64,000 bases of DNA from Candidatus Zixiibacteriota bacterium. Lineage in GTDB: Bacteria; Zixibacteria; MSB-5A5; GN15; FEB-12. The position numbers were made by a program, and so were the translations under genes. The notes under the pieces were generated by a model. The model was not told the origin of the DNA. It saw only the letters and a list, made by a program, of their open reading frames with translations, and did no database searches. The DNA lies in contig JBFLZR010000001.1 in NCBI GenBank assembly GCA_040756055.1, positions 499,849-563,848 on the forward strand, written 5' to 3'. Below, piece after piece: positions 40,517 through 55,511 of the stretch. The stretch's first letter is position 1, and each line of letters begins with the position of its first letter.

Positions 40517-41143
40517 CTATCGTATCTTCTTGAAAATATAGCCGCCGGTTCGGGCGCCCCAGACCTGGTTGCCTTCAGCGTCAAAGCCGCGGTCCCAGCT
40601 GTAAAGCGCCGACTCGGTGATCTTCACCTCCGAAGTGGCATAGGAGGCTCCACGCAGATCGCTCTCGCAGTCGGTGTCTCGGGTGCTTCCCACGAAAGCC
40701 GTTTCGTTTTCGAGTTGAAGGTAAATAGAGCAGCCCGCCCTTTCGGTCAATGAATCCGGAGAAAGAACGTTGAGACGGAACGGTTCTTTCCAGGCGCCGG
40801 CGAAGCGGAGCGGCTCCTCGAAAGTGTATACTTCGGAAACAAAGGTACCGTCGTACCGCAGGACAAGGTGATAGATTCTCTGACGATACGGCTCATCGAG
40901 ATTGGTCGCTGCGGCCTGCTCAACATAGAGCCAGGCGCCGTCTTCACGATCGGGCCAGATCGGCACCATGTGCAGTCGAATGTCATAGAAATTGGAATCG
41001 GCGAGAGACTGTTCGCGGCTGCTGAAAGAGCCGGTCATCCATTCAACGAGTTGCTCCAACCGGAAATCTTCCGACTCCTGCGCCTGTGGTATAGAACCTG
41101 CAAGCAGCAGAGAGCAAAACAGCAGAGACAACATTGTCCTCAT
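40517..41143 (-). CDS. secreted CpeT/CpcT-like protein
   Basis: A signal peptide (about residues 1-21) precedes a domain matching the CpcT/CpeT family, whose cyanobacterial members attach bilins to phycobiliproteins. Diagnostic parts are LVEWMTGSFSSREQSL, LYVEQAAATNLDEPYRQRIYHL, and the end motif YSWDRGFDAEGNQVWG. Outside cyanobacteria secreted relatives exist and cannot act on phycobilisomes. It has two cysteine pairs or single cysteines (GCSIYL and TDCESD), likely a disulfide. The gene stands alone on the minus strand, convergent with the operon ending at 40460. Confidence 0.78.
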   Translation of the reverse strand: MRTMLSLLFCSLLLAGSIPQAQESEDFRLEQLVEWMTGSFSSREQSLADSNFYDIRLHMVPIWPDREDGAWLYVEQAAATNLDEPYRQRIYHLVLRYDGTFVSEVYTFEEPLRFAGAWKEPFRLNVLSPDSLTERAGCSIYLQLENETAFVGSTRDTDCESDLRGASYATSEVKITESALYSWDRGFDAEGNQVWGARTGGYIFKKIR

Positions 41144-42762: not shown

Positions 42763-43737
42763 TCAAACGTGATTTCGGAGCATCATCTCTTTGGGGTGCG
42801 GGTTGAGGTAAATCTGGTCGGTCAGGTATTCGATTTGGAATTTTTCAACGAAATGTCTCAACAGAGTAATGGGGACAATCAGCGGGACAAGCTGTTTGTG
42901 GTAGTCCTCGATTACCTGGTGGAGTCTTTGCCTGTCATCGTTGTCAGCGACATTTTTTATAAACCCGGCCATATGCATAAGCACATTTGTGTTCTTGGCG
43001 GTAGTTGACTTGAATTTAAGCCCTTCCAGGAACAGAGCGCTGTACTGATCGCAAAAATCTGATGGAGTCATGTGCTTGACCGAGGCCACAAGTTTTCCGA
43101 GCAACTGATAATGTTTCGGGCTGTGAGCCAGAAGAAGATATTTGTGTATGGTATGAAACCTGACCACATCGGCTCTCTTGTAGCCATTGGAGAAAAGACT
43201 CTGCAGGCGGCTATAGGCGAAGACTCTGATTATAAAGTTCTCCCGCAAGACCGCATCGTTGAGCCTACCCTCCTCTTCCACAGGCAGTAGAGGATGGCGC
43301 TCCAGCAGGTGGCGGGCGTAAAGACCGATTGTGCGTTGGTCGGTTGCCTTACCGTCGAGAGTGTACAATTTCACCCTTTCCATTCCGCAACTTGGGGATT
43401 TAGCTTTGAGGATGTAGCCGGACAGCCTGTACTTTTCTATCTGTCTTGCTTTTCTGGCGCTGTACTGATTCATAGCCTGCGTCCAGTCCTTGCCGGTGCG
43501 GCCGCCAACCATTCTGGGGGCATCGGGTATTCCCGCCAGATGCACCGCCTCGCGTGGCACGCCCATGCCAATGTCCACTTCCGGACAGATGGGAATGAAT
43601 TCAAAATATTCGCCGAGAAGATCGGTGATGAAGCGGTCTCGTTTGTGCCCGCCATCGAACCGCACCTTCTGGCCAAGAAGACAGGTGCTGATACCGATTC
43701 GGATGGGAGCGTCTTTCTTGCCTCTTATTCTCGCCAT
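42763..43737 (-). CDS. DUF523-DUF1722 protein (YbgA-like)
   Basis: Two domains: DUF523 (about 10-155; GISTCLLGQKVRFDGGHKRD, CPEVDIGMGVPREAV, KSPSCGM) and DUF1722 (about 180-320; FHTIHKYLLLAHSPKHYQLLG). The arrangement is that of YbgA-type proteins, often found beside photolyase genes. Conserved cysteines in CLLG, CPEVDIG and SPSCG suggest a metal or redox site. Here it is the last gene of the light-response operon. DUF1722/YbgA is known to accompany LitR-type light regulators in other bacteria. Function is unproven. Confidence 0.86.
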   Translation of the reverse strand: MARIRGKKDAPIRIGISTCLLGQKVRFDGGHKRDRFITDLLGEYFEFIPICPEVDIGMGVPREAVHLAGIPDAPRMVGGRTGKDWTQAMNQYSARKARQIEKYRLSGYILKAKSPSCGMERVKLYTLDGKATDQRTIGLYARHLLERHPLLPVEEEGRLNDAVLRENFIIRVFAYSRLQSLFSNGYKRADVVRFHTIHKYLLLAHSPKHYQLLGKLVASVKHMTPSDFCDQYSALFLEGLKFKSTTAKNTNVLMHMAGFIKNVADNDDRQRLHQVIEDYHKQLVPLIVPITLLRHFVEKFQIEYLTDQIYLNPHPKEMMLRNHV

Positions 43738-43782: not shown

Positions 43783-44706
43783 TCAAGCCGTGACCCCGGT
43801 GTTTATGCCCAGAGACTGAAGGTCTTCTTTTTCAAGTGCCGCGCGAGCAGCCTGTTTGAAATTCATCGGGGTGACATGAAAAATACGGCGCGCCAGATCG
43901 TCTGAGCAGACGGTTTCACTTCTTACCGATTCGATCAACGCTCTCGCCAGAGAGGCCTCTATCGGCGTTACGAGATTCACCCAGTGAGACGACAGCCAGG
44001 GTGTAAGGACCGGCACCGGGATGATAAGACGTTTCAGGCCGAGAATGCGCGCGACATCTATCAGCATCTGACGGTAGCTGAGGATATCGGCTCCGCCGAT
44101 GTCGATTGTTCGGCCGAGGGCGTCAGGCAATGTCAGACTGCTGGCAACGTAATCAAGCACATCGGCTATCGCTATCGGTTGAGTTTTGACCTGCACCCAT
44201 CTGGGACAGATCATGATCGGTAGTTTTTGAACGAGATGCTTGATCATCTCAAATGACGCCGACCCGCTCCCCACGATAACGGCCGCCCGAAGTTCGGTGA
44301 CCGCAATTTCGCTTGAACGGAGTATATCGCCAACGCGGTGACGGCTGCGAAGATGGGGTGTCTGCAGATCGGTTCGCTCACCGAGGGCTCCAAGATAAAC
44401 GATTTGCTTAATGCCGTAATGCCGCGCCACCTCGGCGACATTAGTCGCAATCTGCATATCCGTCTGCTCGAAATTTTTGTCGGGGCTGCGCATGGAGTGG
44501 ATGAGATACACGACCTTCTCGACACCGCCCATCGCCCTCATCAAAGCATCAATATCGAGCGCATTCCCGGCAAAAACTTCGTTCCTGTTACCGGTAAGGC
44601 TTCCGGGGTCGCGTACCATGCACCGCACATTATGGCCCCTCGTTAAAAGGTACGGGACCAGTCTTTGTCCCACATATCCCGATGCTCCCAGAACAAGTAC
44701 TTTCAT
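43783..44706 (-). CDS. NAD(P)-binding atypical SDR (NmrA/NDUFA9-like)
   Basis: Extended short-chain dehydrogenase-like protein with the Rossmann motif VLGASGYVGQRLVPYL at the N-terminus and a VVYLIHSM segment that lacks the YxxxK catalytic pair, as in atypical SDRs such as NmrA and the complex I NDUFA9 group. Length 307 aa. The start overlaps the SRPBCC gene stop by 4 bp, so they are coupled. Its place in a photolyase operon is common in LitR regulons. It may bind NAD(P) as a sensor or reduce an unknown compound. Confidence 0.83.
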   Translation of the reverse strand: MKVLVLGASGYVGQRLVPYLLTRGHNVRCMVRDPGSLTGNRNEVFAGNALDIDALMRAMGGVEKVVYLIHSMRSPDKNFEQTDMQIATNVAEVARHYGIKQIVYLGALGERTDLQTPHLRSRHRVGDILRSSEIAVTELRAAVIVGSGSASFEMIKHLVQKLPIMICPRWVQVKTQPIAIADVLDYVASSLTLPDALGRTIDIGGADILSYRQMLIDVARILGLKRLIIPVPVLTPWLSSHWVNLVTPIEASLARALIESVRSETVCSDDLARRIFHVTPMNFKQAARAALEKEDLQSLGINTGVTA

Positions 44707-45212
44707 GAAGCCTTTACCTTTTTGTCTGCCGTATCGGCGCCCGCCTCACGCGACGAACTGCTACGGAATATCGCTTCAATTGCCTTCGCACGAAAGTCAA
44801 AAATGTAGTCCAGCTGTCGCCTCACCCAAAACCGACGGACCAGCCTTCCGATCCACCCCAATGGCAGGGCGTAGCGAACCTCGTCGCGCATTATCGTTCC
44901 CTGCGTTGTCTTTTCGAAAGTGTGAGTGTGGTGCCAGTAGCTGTATGGCCCCTTAAGGGCAACATCGGTGAATCTGTGAGGGGGATCGTAACTTGTGATT
45001 AGAGTGGTCCATCTTATGGGAAAGCCCATCGGGCGGATAGTATAGTCCAGAACCGCTCCGGGGTGCATGGGAATTGGTCCGGGAGTCAGAATTACAAAGC
45101 CGACTGAGGATGGGGTTATTTTCTCGAGATTTTCCGGGCGCTCGAAGAACGAGAACGCCTCCTCAATGGGCCGCGCTATTATTTGTTCGCGTCTCAAAGT
45201 ATATATTTTCAC
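44703..45212 (-). CDS. SRPBCC (START/polyketide-cyclase-like) ligand-binding protein
   Basis: A single SRPBCC domain of about 150 residues: EEAFSFFERPENLEKITPS at the start, YDPPHRFTDVALKGPYSYWHHTHTFE in the middle and the long C-terminal helix (RRFWVRRQLDYIFDFRAKAI). Such proteins bind hydrophobic ligands. The gene overlaps the photolyase stop by 4 bp and the SDR start by 4 bp. An SRPBCC next to an SDR and a photolyase is a recurring trio in light-controlled operons. Ligand unknown. Confidence 0.85.
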   Translation of the reverse strand: MKIYTLRREQIIARPIEEAFSFFERPENLEKITPSSVGFVILTPGPIPMHPGAVLDYTIRPMGFPIRWTTLITSYDPPHRFTDVALKGPYSYWHHTHTFEKTTQGTIMRDEVRYALPLGWIGRLVRRFWVRRQLDYIFDFRAKAIEAIFRSSSSREAGADTADKKVKAS

Positions 45213-46567
45213 CCGGCAGCCCCCGTTTTGTGGCGGTTTATATACGTAACTATGTCAAATTTGCGGTTTGCTCCGCTGTAGCTCATGTAGCGTACCTTGC
45301 CGAAAATCTCGTGCTCGAACCACGGGCGGTCATGTACGCCACCTATCGACCACGCAATTCCAGTGTAACCGTTGGGGTCGCAGCCGTCAAGCTCATATTT
45401 GTCGTTTAGGTAGATAGCGGTATCCAGGGCCTTCTCGGGCGAGATGGTCCACTCAAGAATCTTTTTGGCCCAGTACATACGCATGTAACCGTGCATCTTG
45501 CCGCGCGTTACCATCTCTGTCTGTGCCGCGTTCCACAGTTCATCATGGGTTTGTGCCCGCTCCAATTGATTGGGCGAGTAGAGGTAGGGGCGTGGATCCG
45601 ACCGGTGTTCATCGAGAGATCCTCTGGCCCAGGCCGGGAAACCTGCGAAAGAGTCATAAGACTCATTGTAAAGACAGAAATTGTCGGCAAGCTCACGCCG
45701 AACAATGAGCTCCTCCAAAAAGGCCTCTTGCGATTTTATGTCTGTGGCGCGCAATTGTGTCTCGATAGCGACCCGCTGGGAGGATATTTGACCGAAGTGC
45801 AGGTAGGGGGAAAGATCCGATTGAACTTTCATCGAGGCATCGTTCCGATACTGATGATAATCGGGTAGCCTTTTTTTCAGGAATGTGTTCAGGGTCGCTT
45901 TGGCCCTTTTTTCTCCCGGCAGCGATACAGGATCCGACAGAGCACTGTCGTATGCCGGTGTGAGTCCCCGCGATAGTCGCGGCACGGGTGTGCTCACGGC
46001 ATACGGATGTTTTTTTAACTGCGGGAACCCGGTGAGAAGCTCTTTGATGTGCCGATTGATTTTAGGGCGAAAAGTATAGGCCGCATACTCCTGCTTCGGT
46101 GAGGCTATCCAGGCCGGGACAATGTTGTGTGCGTCCACTTCATATAAGGGCAGCACTGCTTTATCGGCAAGAGACGATTTCCAGGCGCGACTTTCACGCA
46201 GGGGTGAAAAATCGGTGACCAGCAGACCCGGCTGAATCATGCCGATCAATTTCAATAATTCGGAAGGTTTATCAACGTCTGATAGGAAAAATGTGATGTT
46301 CAGTTTCTGAAGTTCGGTTTCAACCTGCTTGAGACCCTCGAGTGAGAAAGCGAGTTGTCGCCGGCTTATTCTGGGATAATCGAGCTTGGGAGCGCCAATT
46401 ACTATCATGGGGCGCTTCAAATCAAGGGCACGTTGTTGCGCAAATAGGAGTGCCCAATTGTCGGTAACCCTCTGGTCGCGACACATTAAGCAGGCAACCG
46501 GTCCTTCTGCCGGGGGAGCCTCTCTGAGCGCCCGAACTCTTCTTTCATCAATTCGCAACTGATTCAT
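45209..46567 (-). CDS. phr: class II CPD photolyase
   Basis: Light-driven flavoenzyme repairing cyclobutane pyrimidine dimers. The N-terminal domain starts VACLMCRDQRVTDNWALLFAQ, typical of class II enzymes. The C-terminal FAD-binding part shows LSPYLHFGQISSQRVA, ELIVRRELADNFC, MHGYMRMYWAKKILEW and DPNGYTGIAWSIGGVHDRPW, all class II hallmarks. Length 452 aa is normal. It is second in the operon, 30 bp behind the CarH-like regulator, which fits light-induced DNA repair. Confidence 0.95.
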   Translation of the reverse strand: MNQLRIDERRVRALREAPPAEGPVACLMCRDQRVTDNWALLFAQQRALDLKRPMIVIGAPKLDYPRISRRQLAFSLEGLKQVETELQKLNITFFLSDVDKPSELLKLIGMIQPGLLVTDFSPLRESRAWKSSLADKAVLPLYEVDAHNIVPAWIASPKQEYAAYTFRPKINRHIKELLTGFPQLKKHPYAVSTPVPRLSRGLTPAYDSALSDPVSLPGEKRAKATLNTFLKKRLPDYHQYRNDASMKVQSDLSPYLHFGQISSQRVAIETQLRATDIKSQEAFLEELIVRRELADNFCLYNESYDSFAGFPAWARGSLDEHRSDPRPYLYSPNQLERAQTHDELWNAAQTEMVTRGKMHGYMRMYWAKKILEWTISPEKALDTAIYLNDKYELDGCDPNGYTGIAWSIGGVHDRPWFEHEIFGKVRYMSYSGANRKFDIVTYINRHKTGAAG

Positions 46568-46597: not shown

Positions 46598-47536
46598 TCA
46601 ATGAAAAACCTTCCTGCTTTCTCTTAGTTCAATTAGCCGCCGACGAAAGTCCGCCAGATCGGTGACCGTGACGGCGCCAATCTCATCAAGCACCGGCTTG
46701 AGGGCATTGGAGGCTCTGCCCCCGGCTATCAGGCTTACGTTATCAGGCAATAAACGACGGAGTTTTTTTAGTTCCAGCAAAAGGCGAGGGTCATCGCCGG
46801 GATAGACTACACTCAGCGCCACGGCACTGGCTTGTTTCTGCTTGACCGATGATGCAATCTCCTCGGCGGGCAAATCCGGACCCAGATAAAGCGAGCGCCA
46901 TCCGAGCGATGTTGCCATCACCGAGGCGATCAGCGCCCCCAGCTCGTGGTGCTGACCGGATGGTGTGGTGGTCAGTAGCAGGGGAGAACGACGGTCACTC
47001 TTTTGCGAGAGCACCATGCTGCCAAGCAAAGATCGTATAACCGATGATGCCAGATGTTCGTGCGCTATTTTGAGATCGCCGCTAAACCACGACTCGCCCG
47101 TCCTTTCCAATAAAGGGGCAAGTACCTTTTCCAGGAAAGCCGCTTGTCCGAGGTCAGTAGAAGCGGCAAGCAAGGTTGTCTCCAGAGAAGCCGAGTCAAA
47201 ATCAAAAATGGCACGCTGACCGGCGTTGATATAGTCATCGGCCGATTTCTCGTTTGGCATTCCAATGGCAGGCGTCTGCGTCAGCGGTCCGTTACTATCG
47301 AGCAATTCCGAAAGTTCCTCGTCGGTCAATCGCGCTACCTGGCTGATAGTTTCACCCGCGGCGGTCGCTTGTCTCAACAAAGATAAACGAAGAATATCGC
47401 TGTCGGTGTACAACCTTCTGCCCGATTCGGTTCGATCCGGCGTCACCGCCCCATACCTTCGCTCCCACATCCTTATTAATTGTGGGGAGAGGCCCGTTTT
47501 TTTCGCAACCACTCTTATTGTGTGTTTATGTTCCAT
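46598..47536 (-). CDS. carH: CarH/LitR-type MerR regulator with cobalamin-binding domain
   Basis: Predicted AdoCbl-dependent light-sensing repressor. The MerR helix-turn-helix is at about 5-75 (IRMWERRYGAVTPDRTESGRRLY). The four-helix cap contains the Wx9EH motif, W150 with E160 and H161. The B12 domain has Q195-x-H197-x-x-G200, the lower-ligand His with Gln in place of the usual Glu/Asp. In darkness AdoCbl drives tetramer formation and DNA binding; light breaks the Co-C bond (family knowledge). It heads a photolyase operon. Three direct repeats 170 bp upstream are the probable binding site. The residue after W150 is Phe, discussed in findings. Confidence 0.9.
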   Translation of the reverse strand: MEHKHTIRVVAKKTGLSPQLIRMWERRYGAVTPDRTESGRRLYTDSDILRLSLLRQATAAGETISQVARLTDEELSELLDSNGPLTQTPAIGMPNEKSADDYINAGQRAIFDFDSASLETTLLAASTDLGQAAFLEKVLAPLLERTGESWFSGDLKIAHEHLASSVIRSLLGSMVLSQKSDRRSPLLLTTTPSGQHHELGALIASVMATSLGWRSLYLGPDLPAEEIASSVKQKQASAVALSVVYPGDDPRLLLELKKLRRLLPDNVSLIAGGRASNALKPVLDEIGAVTVTDLADFRRRLIELRESRKVFH

Positions 47537-47706
47537 CGAACTCTCTGCCCTATGTTAATATTTTGTTTAACTTATCAACATCTGAAATGTCTAATTTGTT
47601 TCCATAATATCAACTTTTTAATAGTCGGCCGGTATCTTTGGACAGATAGAACCTGTTGTTGTATAGTCGTTTGCGCCTACGCGAGCCGTCGCGCCCCCAA
47701 AAACAT

Positions 47707-47739
47707 ACAAAATTTATACAAAAATGGAACAAATTTGGT
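47707..47739. promoter_or_regulatory. three 11-bp direct repeats, candidate CarH operator
   Basis: The word ACAAA begins at 47707, 47718 and 47729, exactly 11 bp apart (units ACAAAATTTAT, ACAAAAATGGA, ACAAATTTGGT). Known CarH-DNA complexes bind three tandem 11-bp direct repeats. The array lies in the 263-bp gap between carH and the divergent gene at 47800, overlapping weak -35/-10-like elements for leftward transcription. Spacing is seen directly; the binding assignment is inference from the family. Confidence 0.68.
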
Positions 47740-47799
47740 ACGGTTTCTGGTTGTATAGTCTAAACAAAACGAGAAACCTAAGAACAAAGGAGAAATGAA

Positions 47800-48021
47800 A
47801 TGAAGAGTATGGATGTAATCGTAGCAGTGCTGCTGGTAGTCGGCGGTTTGAATTGGGGACTGGTTGGGATCTTGAAATTTGATCTGGTGGCGACCATTTT
47901 TGGCAGCGGTTCACTCCTTGCGAATATTGTCTACTCGTTGGTCGGTATTTCAGCTCTTTACCAGGCGATGCAGTGGAAGGCTATCCAGCGCCGCTGGATG
48001 CCGTCCGCTTCCAGAGCTTAA
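47800..48021 (+). CDS. DUF378 small membrane protein (73 aa)
   Basis: Two hydrophobic helices with the DUF378 signature VVGGLNWGLVGILKFDLV and YSLVGISALY. Such short proteins are widespread and uncharacterised. A strong AAAGGAG site precedes the ATG. It is divergent from carH and lies just downstream of the repeat array, so it could be under the same light control. The lipoprotein gene follows after 56 bp. Confidence 0.88.
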   Translation: MKSMDVIVAVLLVVGGLNWGLVGILKFDLVATIFGSGSLLANIVYSLVGISALYQAMQWKAIQRRWMPSASRA

Positions 48022-48077: not shown

Positions 48078-48785
48078 ATGAGAAAACACTTACGCCATTT
48101 GCCCCTGGTTGGGATGCTGCTAGCTGTCCCTATATTAACCGTCTCGTGCAGTGACGACGACGACAGCAATCCGGTGCTCAGCACCCCCGCGCCGACTGCC
48201 AATGTCATTATAGTCCACGCGTCGCCCGATGCTCCCGGGGTTGATATCGTGGTCGACAATGGAGCCCCGGCGGTTGAGGATTTGGAGTTTCTACAGAATA
48301 CCGGTTACGTGGCCTTGAATTCAGGTACACGAAACGTGAAAGTCAACGTTGCTAATTCCACTACGACTGTGATCAACGCCGACTTGAACCTCAGCCCTAA
48401 TGTCAACTACTCGGTTTTCGCAGTCAACTCGGTGGCAAACATTGAGCCGCTGGTTCTGGTGGATGATCTCTCGGCGCCTGCCGCAGGCAAAGCACATGTG
48501 CGTTTCGTACATCTTTCGCCCGATGCTCCGTCGGTTGATGTTGCTTTAGCCGGTGGCGGAGCGGTGGTTTTCGGCAATGTCGCGTTTAAGGAGTTTCTTG
48601 GCTTCACACCGCTTGATGCCGGTACCTACAACCTTGAGGTGCGTGTGGCCGGTACCGCGACTGTCGCTCTACCCCTGCCGGGTATAACCCTCCAGGCAGG
48701 TAAGATATACACCGTCTTTGCCAAAGGCTTCTTGTCCGGAACCGGTTCCCAGGCCCTCGGTGCGGAGATAATTGTCAACAACTAA
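48078..48785 (+). CDS. DUF4397 lipoprotein
   Basis: Lipoprotein signal with lipobox VSC near residue 24, followed by an acidic SDDDDS stretch. Two DUF4397 units of about 100 residues: the repeat hallmark VIIVHASPDAPGVDIVVDN recurs as VRFVHLSPDAPSVDVALAG. Predicted beta-sandwich surface protein of unknown role. An ideal GGAGAT site lies before the ATG. A strong intrinsic terminator follows. Confidence 0.88.
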   Translation: MRKHLRHLPLVGMLLAVPILTVSCSDDDDSNPVLSTPAPTANVIIVHASPDAPGVDIVVDNGAPAVEDLEFLQNTGYVALNSGTRNVKVNVANSTTTVINADLNLSPNVNYSVFAVNSVANIEPLVLVDDLSAPAAGKAHVRFVHLSPDAPSVDVALAGGGAVVFGNVAFKEFLGFTPLDAGTYNLEVRVAGTATVALPLPGITLQAGKIYTVFAKGFLSGTGSQALGAEIIVNN

Positions 48786-54986: not shown

Positions 54987-55511
54987 ATGGAAATCAAAGC
55001 TGTACACGATTATTCCAGCATTGTATCTGAACTCAACGATGACGTTTTCCGGTTGATTCGCCGAATTGTCGGCGACAGGGATCAGGCTTTGGACCTGACA
55101 CAAGATGTTTTCGTGAAGATTTTGTCCGGTGATATTAAAATCAAAGACTGGTCACGGCGCAGAGCCTATGTGCTCAAATCAGCCTTCAATGTTGCCCTCA
55201 ATTTCAAGAGGGATCGCGGCCGGCGGACAGCCAAACACGAATTGATTCGGCAGCAGGCAGAAACGCTTGATGAACAGCACCAGGTCACGCCGGAACTTGA
55301 CGATACCTGCGTCAGGCTAACCGCTGCCCTTGAAAGTCTGGCCGCAAAACAGAGAGAGGCGCTGACGCTGCGATTTTTTGGAGATTTGAGTATTGCTGAA
55401 GTGGCGCTAATCATGTCAGTCTCGGTGGGCGCTGTCAAAGTGCATCTGGCCAGAGGACTGAAGAATCTGCATCGCTTGATGCGCGAAGATTCACAAAAGG
55501 AGTTAATATGA
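54987..55511 (+). CDS. ECF-family RNA polymerase sigma factor
   Basis: Group 4 sigma factor of 174 residues with region 2 (DDVFRLIRRIVGDRDQALDLTQDVFVKI, quoted in short: QALDLTQDVFVKI is the core) and region 4 (AKQREALTLRFFGDLSIAEV and SVGAVKVHLARGLKNL). It initiates transcription at extracytoplasmic-stress promoters. The stop overlaps the start of the anti-sigma gene (ATGA), the usual arrangement. The upstream lipoprotein is likely part of the same unit. No target promoter motif was identified. Confidence 0.93.
   Translation: MEIKAVHDYSSIVSELNDDVFRLIRRIVGDRDQALDLTQDVFVKILSGDIKIKDWSRRRAYVLKSAFNVALNFKRDRGRRTAKHELIRQQAETLDEQHQVTPELDDTCVRLTAALESLAAKQREALTLRFFGDLSIAEVALIMSVSVGAVKVHLARGLKNLHRLMREDSQKELI

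What the first reader, a model, noticed from the sequence alone, without database searches (positions are those of the whole stretch)
47707..47739. Three direct repeats at exact 11-bp spacing upstream of a CarH-type photoreceptor gene
ACAAA occurs at 47707, 47718 and 47729. CarH tetramers are known to contact three consecutive 11-bp direct repeats. The array sits in the intergenic region between carH and a divergent small gene, over promoter-like elements. Exact period, copy number and position all agree with the family model, although the repeat word was found by eye in AT-rich DNA.
Basis: partly seen in the sequence, partly recalled or inferred. Interest (0 to 1): 0.72.

Follow-up and report, generated by a model that had tools for sequence, protein, structure and literature searches.

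The report
Light-sensor operators flanking a carH gene
Next to a gene for a vitamin-B12 light sensor in an uncultured bacterium lie two sets of evenly spaced DNA repeats that very probably let the sensor shut off its own DNA-repair operon and a neighbouring membrane-protein gene in the dark; this is a known type of switch, here attached to a gene and an apparent promoter type not found linked to it in the papers searched.

Summary
The neighbouring protein is a CarH by its signature motifs, sequence match and predicted fold. In the whole 3.3-Mb genome only three places match that well; two are O1 and O2. In 14 carH/DUF378 intergenic regions, ACA pairs at 11-bp spacing number 34 against 2.8 in shuffles. 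Unlinked DUF378 copies in two carH-bearing genomes carry repeats too; five DUF378 paralogues not associated with carH do not. O1 and its relatives sit on or beside a conserved GGAAC-N17-19-GTT element that looks like an ECF-type promoter, not the sigma-A promoter of studied CarH systems. Verdict: a real CarH operator pair, a new member of a known kind. New are the conserved DUF378 target, likely autoregulation of a repair operon, and CarH apparently acting at an ECF-type promoter. Binding and light response are not shown.

The parts
47700..47732 (+). O1: CarH operator, three tandem 11-bp repeats R1 AAAACATACAA, R2 AATTTATACAA, R3 AAATGGAACAA, pointing at DUF378
   Evidence: consensus from PMC8156234
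47733..47743 (+). R4 ATTTGGTACGG, a degenerate fourth repeat in register; TnnACA in many relatives (TAGACA, TATACA)
47726..47730 (+). GGAAC, -35-like element of the DUF378 promoter, lying inside R3
47750..47752 (+). GTT (of GTTGTATAG), -10-like element 19 bp after GGAAC
47552..47584 (-). O2: second CarH operator, on the minus strand CAGATGTTGAT AAGTTAAACAA AATATTAACAT (one degenerate and two perfect repeats), just upstream of carH
   Evidence: tandem pairs at the same place in L003, L012, L014, L016, L019, L022, L041, L010
46598..47536 (-). carH: MerR-type HTH plus AdoCbl-binding domain; motifs Wx9EH and (Q)xHx2Gx41SxVx27GG
45209..46567 (-). class II DNA photolyase, 30 bp after carH, likely same operon
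44703..45212 (-). SRPBCC-like (polyketide cyclase) protein, overlaps the photolyase gene
43783..44706 (-). NAD(P)-binding epimerase-like protein, overlaps the previous gene
42763..43737 (-). 2-thiouracil desulfurase (DUF523) plus DUF1722 protein, possible end of the operon
47800..48021 (+). DUF378 small membrane-protein gene, target of O1
48078..48785 (+). DUF4397 lipoprotein-like gene, second gene after DUF378; order also kept in L003

Best explanation
The array is a CarH operator (O1) for the divergent DUF378-DUF4397 genes, paired with a second CarH operator (O2) for carH and the photolyase operon. In the dark, AdoCbl-loaded CarH oligomers would occupy O1 and O2 and block RNA polymerase; light below about 530 nm breaks the Co-C bond, CarH falls apart and leaves the DNA, and both divergent transcripts are released. 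At O1 the blocked promoter is probably an ECF-type promoter (GGAAC-N19-GTT) whose -35 lies inside repeat 3. Shown here: the repeats, their register, conservation, placement genome-wide, the identity of CarH, the conserved promoter-like pair. Inferred: binding, AdoCbl and light dependence, repression, the sigma factor, operon structure.
For: Repeat unit, period and copy number match the published CarH operator. In 3.3 Mb only three places match 13 of 15 consensus positions, and two are O1 and O2. In 17 genomes five of six near-perfect hits lie in the carH/DUF378 intergenic region. Pooled intergenic ACA pairs at 11 bp: 34 against 2.8 +/- 1.6 in shuffles; without the window and its nearest relative 28 against 2.3; triples 10 against 0.04. 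carH and DUF378 co-occur: 15 of 16 carH genomes against 5 of 63 others, Fisher p = 4e-11. Unlinked DUF378 copies in carH-bearing G010 and G013 carry tandem repeats; five DUF378 paralogues not associated with carH do not. CarH identity. Promoter pair in 16 of 18 promoters, 0 of 5 controls, 0.1 expected in shuffles.
Against: Only R2 of O1 is a perfect repeat and R4 is degenerate; the reversed-pattern control gave 6 hits where the true pattern gave 3, so the count alone is not an excess and the argument rests on where the hits fall. L041 has a weak array and L015 only a pair. The B12 motif has Q instead of E/D before the ligand histidine, and the NCBIfam CarH model scores 127 against a cut-off of 400. 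The related genomes share ancestry, so counts are not fully independent. No binding or expression data exist.
Confidence: 0.9

Rival explanations
1. The repeats are chance periodicity in AT-rich intergenic DNA.
For: The region is 36.5% GC; within it alone a score this high arises in 0.25% of shuffles, and the word was picked by eye.
Against: Conserved 11-bp register in diverged relatives, genome-wide hits fall on this very intergenic region, unlinked targets carry repeats and carH-independent paralogues do not.
Confidence: 0.02
2. CarH here activates rather than represses: like other MerR proteins it remodels a promoter with a long spacer (19 bp), and light changes activation. Streptomyces LitR is described as promoting litS transcription in light (PMC12705666).
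For: MerR activators act at 19-20 bp spacers (own knowledge), and GGAAC-N18-19-GTT is long by one or two against EcfG-type promoters (own knowledge of their spacing); in most of the 18 promoters repeats lie on or close to the -35.
Against: In L017, L018, L067 and L075 the array lies at or beyond the -10, where a bound protein would block; the direct-repeat arrangement is that of repressing CarH, not of palindromic MerR sites (PMC8156234).
Confidence: 0.08
3. GGAAC-N17-19-GTT is not an ECF promoter but part of an extended CarH or other regulator site (AAC...GTT is an inverted repeat), and transcription starts at an ordinary sigma-70 promoter, for instance TTGGAC-N18-TATAGT at 47638-47667. This rival concerns the promoter type only and is compatible with O1 being a CarH operator.
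For: GTTGTATA contains TGTATA, the reverse of a CarH half-site; a sigma-70-like pair exists upstream in the window; no ECF gene of this genome shows a convincing autoregulated copy of the motif.
Against: TGT is not invariant whereas GTT is; in four promoters the pair is kept although the repeats lie elsewhere in a different register.
Confidence: 0.3

Closest known systems
Thermus thermophilus CarH and its operator (PDB 5c8d/5c8e)
   Same: Protein architecture and motifs; three tandem 11-bp TnnACA-type repeats overlapping a promoter element
   Different: Less perfect repeats at O1; target is DUF378 and a photolyase operon; O1 promoter looks ECF-type
Myxobacterial CarH operators (S. cellulosum, H. 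ochraceum, Cystobacter; PMC9304148)
   Same: Mixed perfect and degenerate repeats bound by CarH; divergent promoters; sites on -35 and/or -10
   Different: There they control carotenoid genes; here no carotenoid gene was seen in the carH cluster
Bacillus megaterium CarH operators (four repeats, or three plus a degenerate one)
   Same: O1 read as three repeats plus degenerate R4 fits this layout; relative L014 has four ACA repeats
   Different: Targets and promoter type
Streptomyces LitR-LitS and Pseudomonas class II LitR regulons
   Same: LitR-family light regulator linked to an ECF sigma factor, or photolyase and partners under LitR control
   Different: LitR acts on the sigma gene, which then drives targets; here CarH repeats lie directly on an ECF-like promoter. 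Class II LitR lacks B12 binding

Membership tests
[quoted passage not shown]
   W150 and E160-H161 in alignment A1; present in all relatives listed except L010
CarH (AdoCbl-dependent LitR class I) | E/DxHx2Gx41SxV/Tx22-27GG B12-binding motif | tested here: inconclusive
   QxHx2Gx41SxVx27GG: met except Q for E/D at the first position (motif from PMC8156234)
CarH (AdoCbl-dependent LitR class I) | N-terminal MerR HTH plus C-terminal B12-binding domain, CarH fold | tested here: met
   Pfam MerR_1 and B12-binding_2 over cut-off, B12-binding just below; Foldseek top 13 hits are full-length Thermus CarH
CarH (AdoCbl-dependent LitR class I) | NCBIfam TransRegCarH equivalog cut-off (a naming threshold, not a published defining feature) | tested here: not met
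   127 bits against a cut-off of 400; best-scoring family nonetheless
CarH (AdoCbl-dependent LitR class I) | Dark AdoCbl-dependent oligomerisation, light-induced disassembly | not testable with these tools
   needs purified protein
CarH operator | Three or four tandem 11-bp repeats nAnnTnnACAn (some may be degenerate) | tested here: met
   O1 13 of 15, O2 13 of 15
CarH operator | Overlap with a promoter element of the target gene | tested here: met
   R3 contains the GGAAC of the conserved promoter-like pair; promoter itself not mapped experimentally
CarH operator | Bound by CarH in the dark, released in light | not testable with these tools
   needs EMSA or footprint
ECF-type promoter | GGAAC-type -35 and a GTT/GTC-type -10 at fixed spacing | tested here: met
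   16 of 18 strict, spacing 17-19; similar to RpoE GGAACTT and EcfG AAC/CGTT boxes (PMC8103513)
ECF-type promoter | A cognate ECF sigma factor that needs it | tested here: inconclusive
   19 sigma region-4 matches in the genome; only one (L086) has the strict motif upstream of its frame, which chance could give

The most novel reading that the evidence does not exclude
In Zixibacteria CarH directly represses an ECF-sigma promoter, so that DUF378 is made only when light has removed CarH and a second stress signal has activated an ECF sigma factor: a light-AND-stress gate on one promoter, with DUF378 a conserved and so far unrecognised photoprotection protein.
Probability: 0.4. Interest if true: 0.6.

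Novelty: new member of a known kind. Interest (0 to 1): 0.42.

Why it matters
It extends the CarH operator code to a phylum of uncultured bacteria with a clean comparative test, ties a family of unknown function (DUF378) to light response, and predicts control of repair genes (photolyase here, UV endonuclease UvdE in the nearest relative) rather than carotenoid genes. The apparent ECF promoter under CarH repeats would join two light and stress pathways at one site, which can be tested directly.

Tried and rejected
Perfect TnnACA triple search of the own genome with 1 mismatch gave chance-level hits (6 against 10 for the reversed pattern); the fuller consensus was needed. The duplicated 11-mer GTTGTATAGTC (47658, 47750) was considered as a CarH half-site on the other strand: no partner at 11 bp by inspection. 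Search for the ECF sigma factor by autoregulation gave no clear candidate. The strict promoter pattern in the window is at chance level overall (5 hits in 64 kb), so it is informative only by conservation. The apparently carH-less array of L074 (G067) lies about 100 bp from a contig end, so it is not a counter-example. L055 gave no readable start and was left out of the controls. No paper found links DUF378 or Zixibacteria to CarH.

Full report
OBSERVATION. ACAAA stands at 47707, 47718 and 47729 on the + strand, between carH (46598-47536, minus) and a 73-aa gene (47800-48021, plus). In dinucleotide shuffles of the 263-bp intergenic region a 5-mer tripled at 11 bp never occurred in 1000 trials, and at any spacing from 5 to 20 bp in 0.8%. 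Taken alone this is suggestive, not conclusive.

THE REGULATOR. The 312-aa protein has MerR and B12-binding domains; its best solved relatives are Thermus CarH/LitR. The review PMC8156234 defines CarH homologues by two motifs. Wx9EH is present (W150, E160-H161). The B12 motif is present as QxHx2Gx41SxVx27GG, with Q where E or D is usual. An AlphaFold2 model from 17 related sequences (mean pLDDT 90.9) has full-length Thermus CarH, including the DNA complex, as its best Foldseek matches. The NCBIfam CarH equivalog cut-off is not reached, so it is a distant CarH, but the motif definition fits.

THE OPERATOR. Published CarH operators are three or four tandem 11-bp repeats nAnnTnnACAn; degenerate copies are tolerated and even one perfect with two degenerate repeats is bound (PMC9304148, PMC8156234). 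Read this way the array is AAAACATACAA / AATTTATACAA / AAATGGAACAA (47700-47732, 13 of 15 consensus bases), followed in register by a degenerate ATTTGGTACGG. A second array lies on the minus strand at 47584-47552: CAGATGTTGAT / AAGTTAAACAA / AATATTAACAT, the last two perfect, ending 15 bp before the carH start codon. In the 64-kb window these are the only two places of score 13 or more. In the whole 3.3-Mb genome only three places match at two mismatches or fewer: these two and one on contig 7. The reversed pattern gave six, so the number is not above chance; what is beyond chance is that two of three lie in one 263-bp stretch beside carH.

RELATIVES. Seventeen carH loci, the window included, were found in 16 of 80 genomes of the order; in 14 regions, counting the window, carH is divergent from DUF378. 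Their pooled intergenic ACA pairs peak at 11 bp: 34 against 2.8 +/- 1.6; without the window and its nearest relative 28 against 2.3; triples 10 against 0.04. In 17 genomes the stricter pattern (one mismatch) has six hits; five are in carH/DUF378 intergenic regions and the sixth is inside a coding frame. DUF378 occurs in 15 of 16 carH genomes and 5 of 63 others (p = 4e-11). In G010 and G013, where DUF378 is unlinked to carH, its promoters still carry two or three tandem ACA repeats; five DUF378 genes not associated with carH (four in carH-less genomes, one a second copy) have none.

A SECOND CONSERVED ELEMENT. Sixteen of 18 non-redundant carH-associated DUF378 promoters hold GGAAC-N17-19-GTT, and the other two hold it with one change; shuffles give 0.1 on average, other spacings almost none, and the five controls have none. 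In most the GGAACA is itself a repeat. In four (L017, L018, L067, L075) the pair is kept while the repeats lie at or beyond the GTT in another register. So the pair is a separate element, most simply a promoter of ECF type (compare RpoE GGAACTT and EcfG AAC/CGTT, PMC8103513). Studied CarH operators overlap sigma-A promoters (PMC8156234). The sigma factor was not identified: 19 region-4 matches exist in the genome, none with a convincing copy of the motif. By contrast O2-type sites in relatives L010, L014 and L016 include a TTGACA box, as in known CarH promoters.

TARGETS. carH is followed after 30 bp by a class II photolyase, then overlapping SRPBCC and epimerase genes and a DUF523-DUF1722 gene; in the nearest relative carH is followed by a UV endonuclease (UvdE) gene. 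DUF378 is followed by a DUF4397 gene in both. No carotenoid gene was seen among the genes annotated around carH; the one phytoene/squalene synthase homologue found is on another contig.

MECHANISM. Dark: AdoCbl-CarH sits on O1 and O2 and keeps RNA polymerase off both divergent promoters. Light: photolysis, disassembly, release. The steps from sequence to conserved operator are shown; binding, light response, repression and sigma factor are inferred from the CarH family. An activating MerR-like role is less likely because the position of the repeats relative to the promoter moves from -35 to beyond -10 among relatives.

NOVELTY. The operator and regulator are a known kind. New, as far as the searched papers go, are DUF378 as conserved target, the Zixibacteria setting, and CarH repeats on an ECF-like promoter.

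Noticed in passing
47658-47668 and 47750-47760 (+): The 11-mer GTTGTATAGTC occurs twice exactly, 92 bp apart, in the same intergenic region; the first has a sigma-70-like TTGGAC 18 bp before TATAGT, the second follows GGAAC. Not explained.
   Followed up: partly
L004:982-1644 (-): On a contig titled Akkermansia (verrucomicrobial MAG) the gene divergent from carH is an ECF sigma factor, recalling Streptomyces LitR-LitS.
   Followed up: partly
54987-55511 (+): An ECF sigma factor gene lies 7 kb from the operator; possible but untested partner.
   Followed up: no
L008, upstream of carH (before 6001): A Latescibacterota carH has TAGACA/TTGACA/GAGACA-type repeats at 11 bp pointing away from carH, so the same operator code appears outside the phylum.
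   Followed up: partly
pooled intergenic regions of 14 loci: ACA pairs are also in excess at 35 bp (10 against 2.7), not a multiple of 11; cause unknown.
   Followed up: no
40517-41143 (-): A CpeT/CpcT-family (DUF1001) protein 2 kb downstream of the carH operon, a family best known from phycobiliprotein lyases.
   Followed up: no
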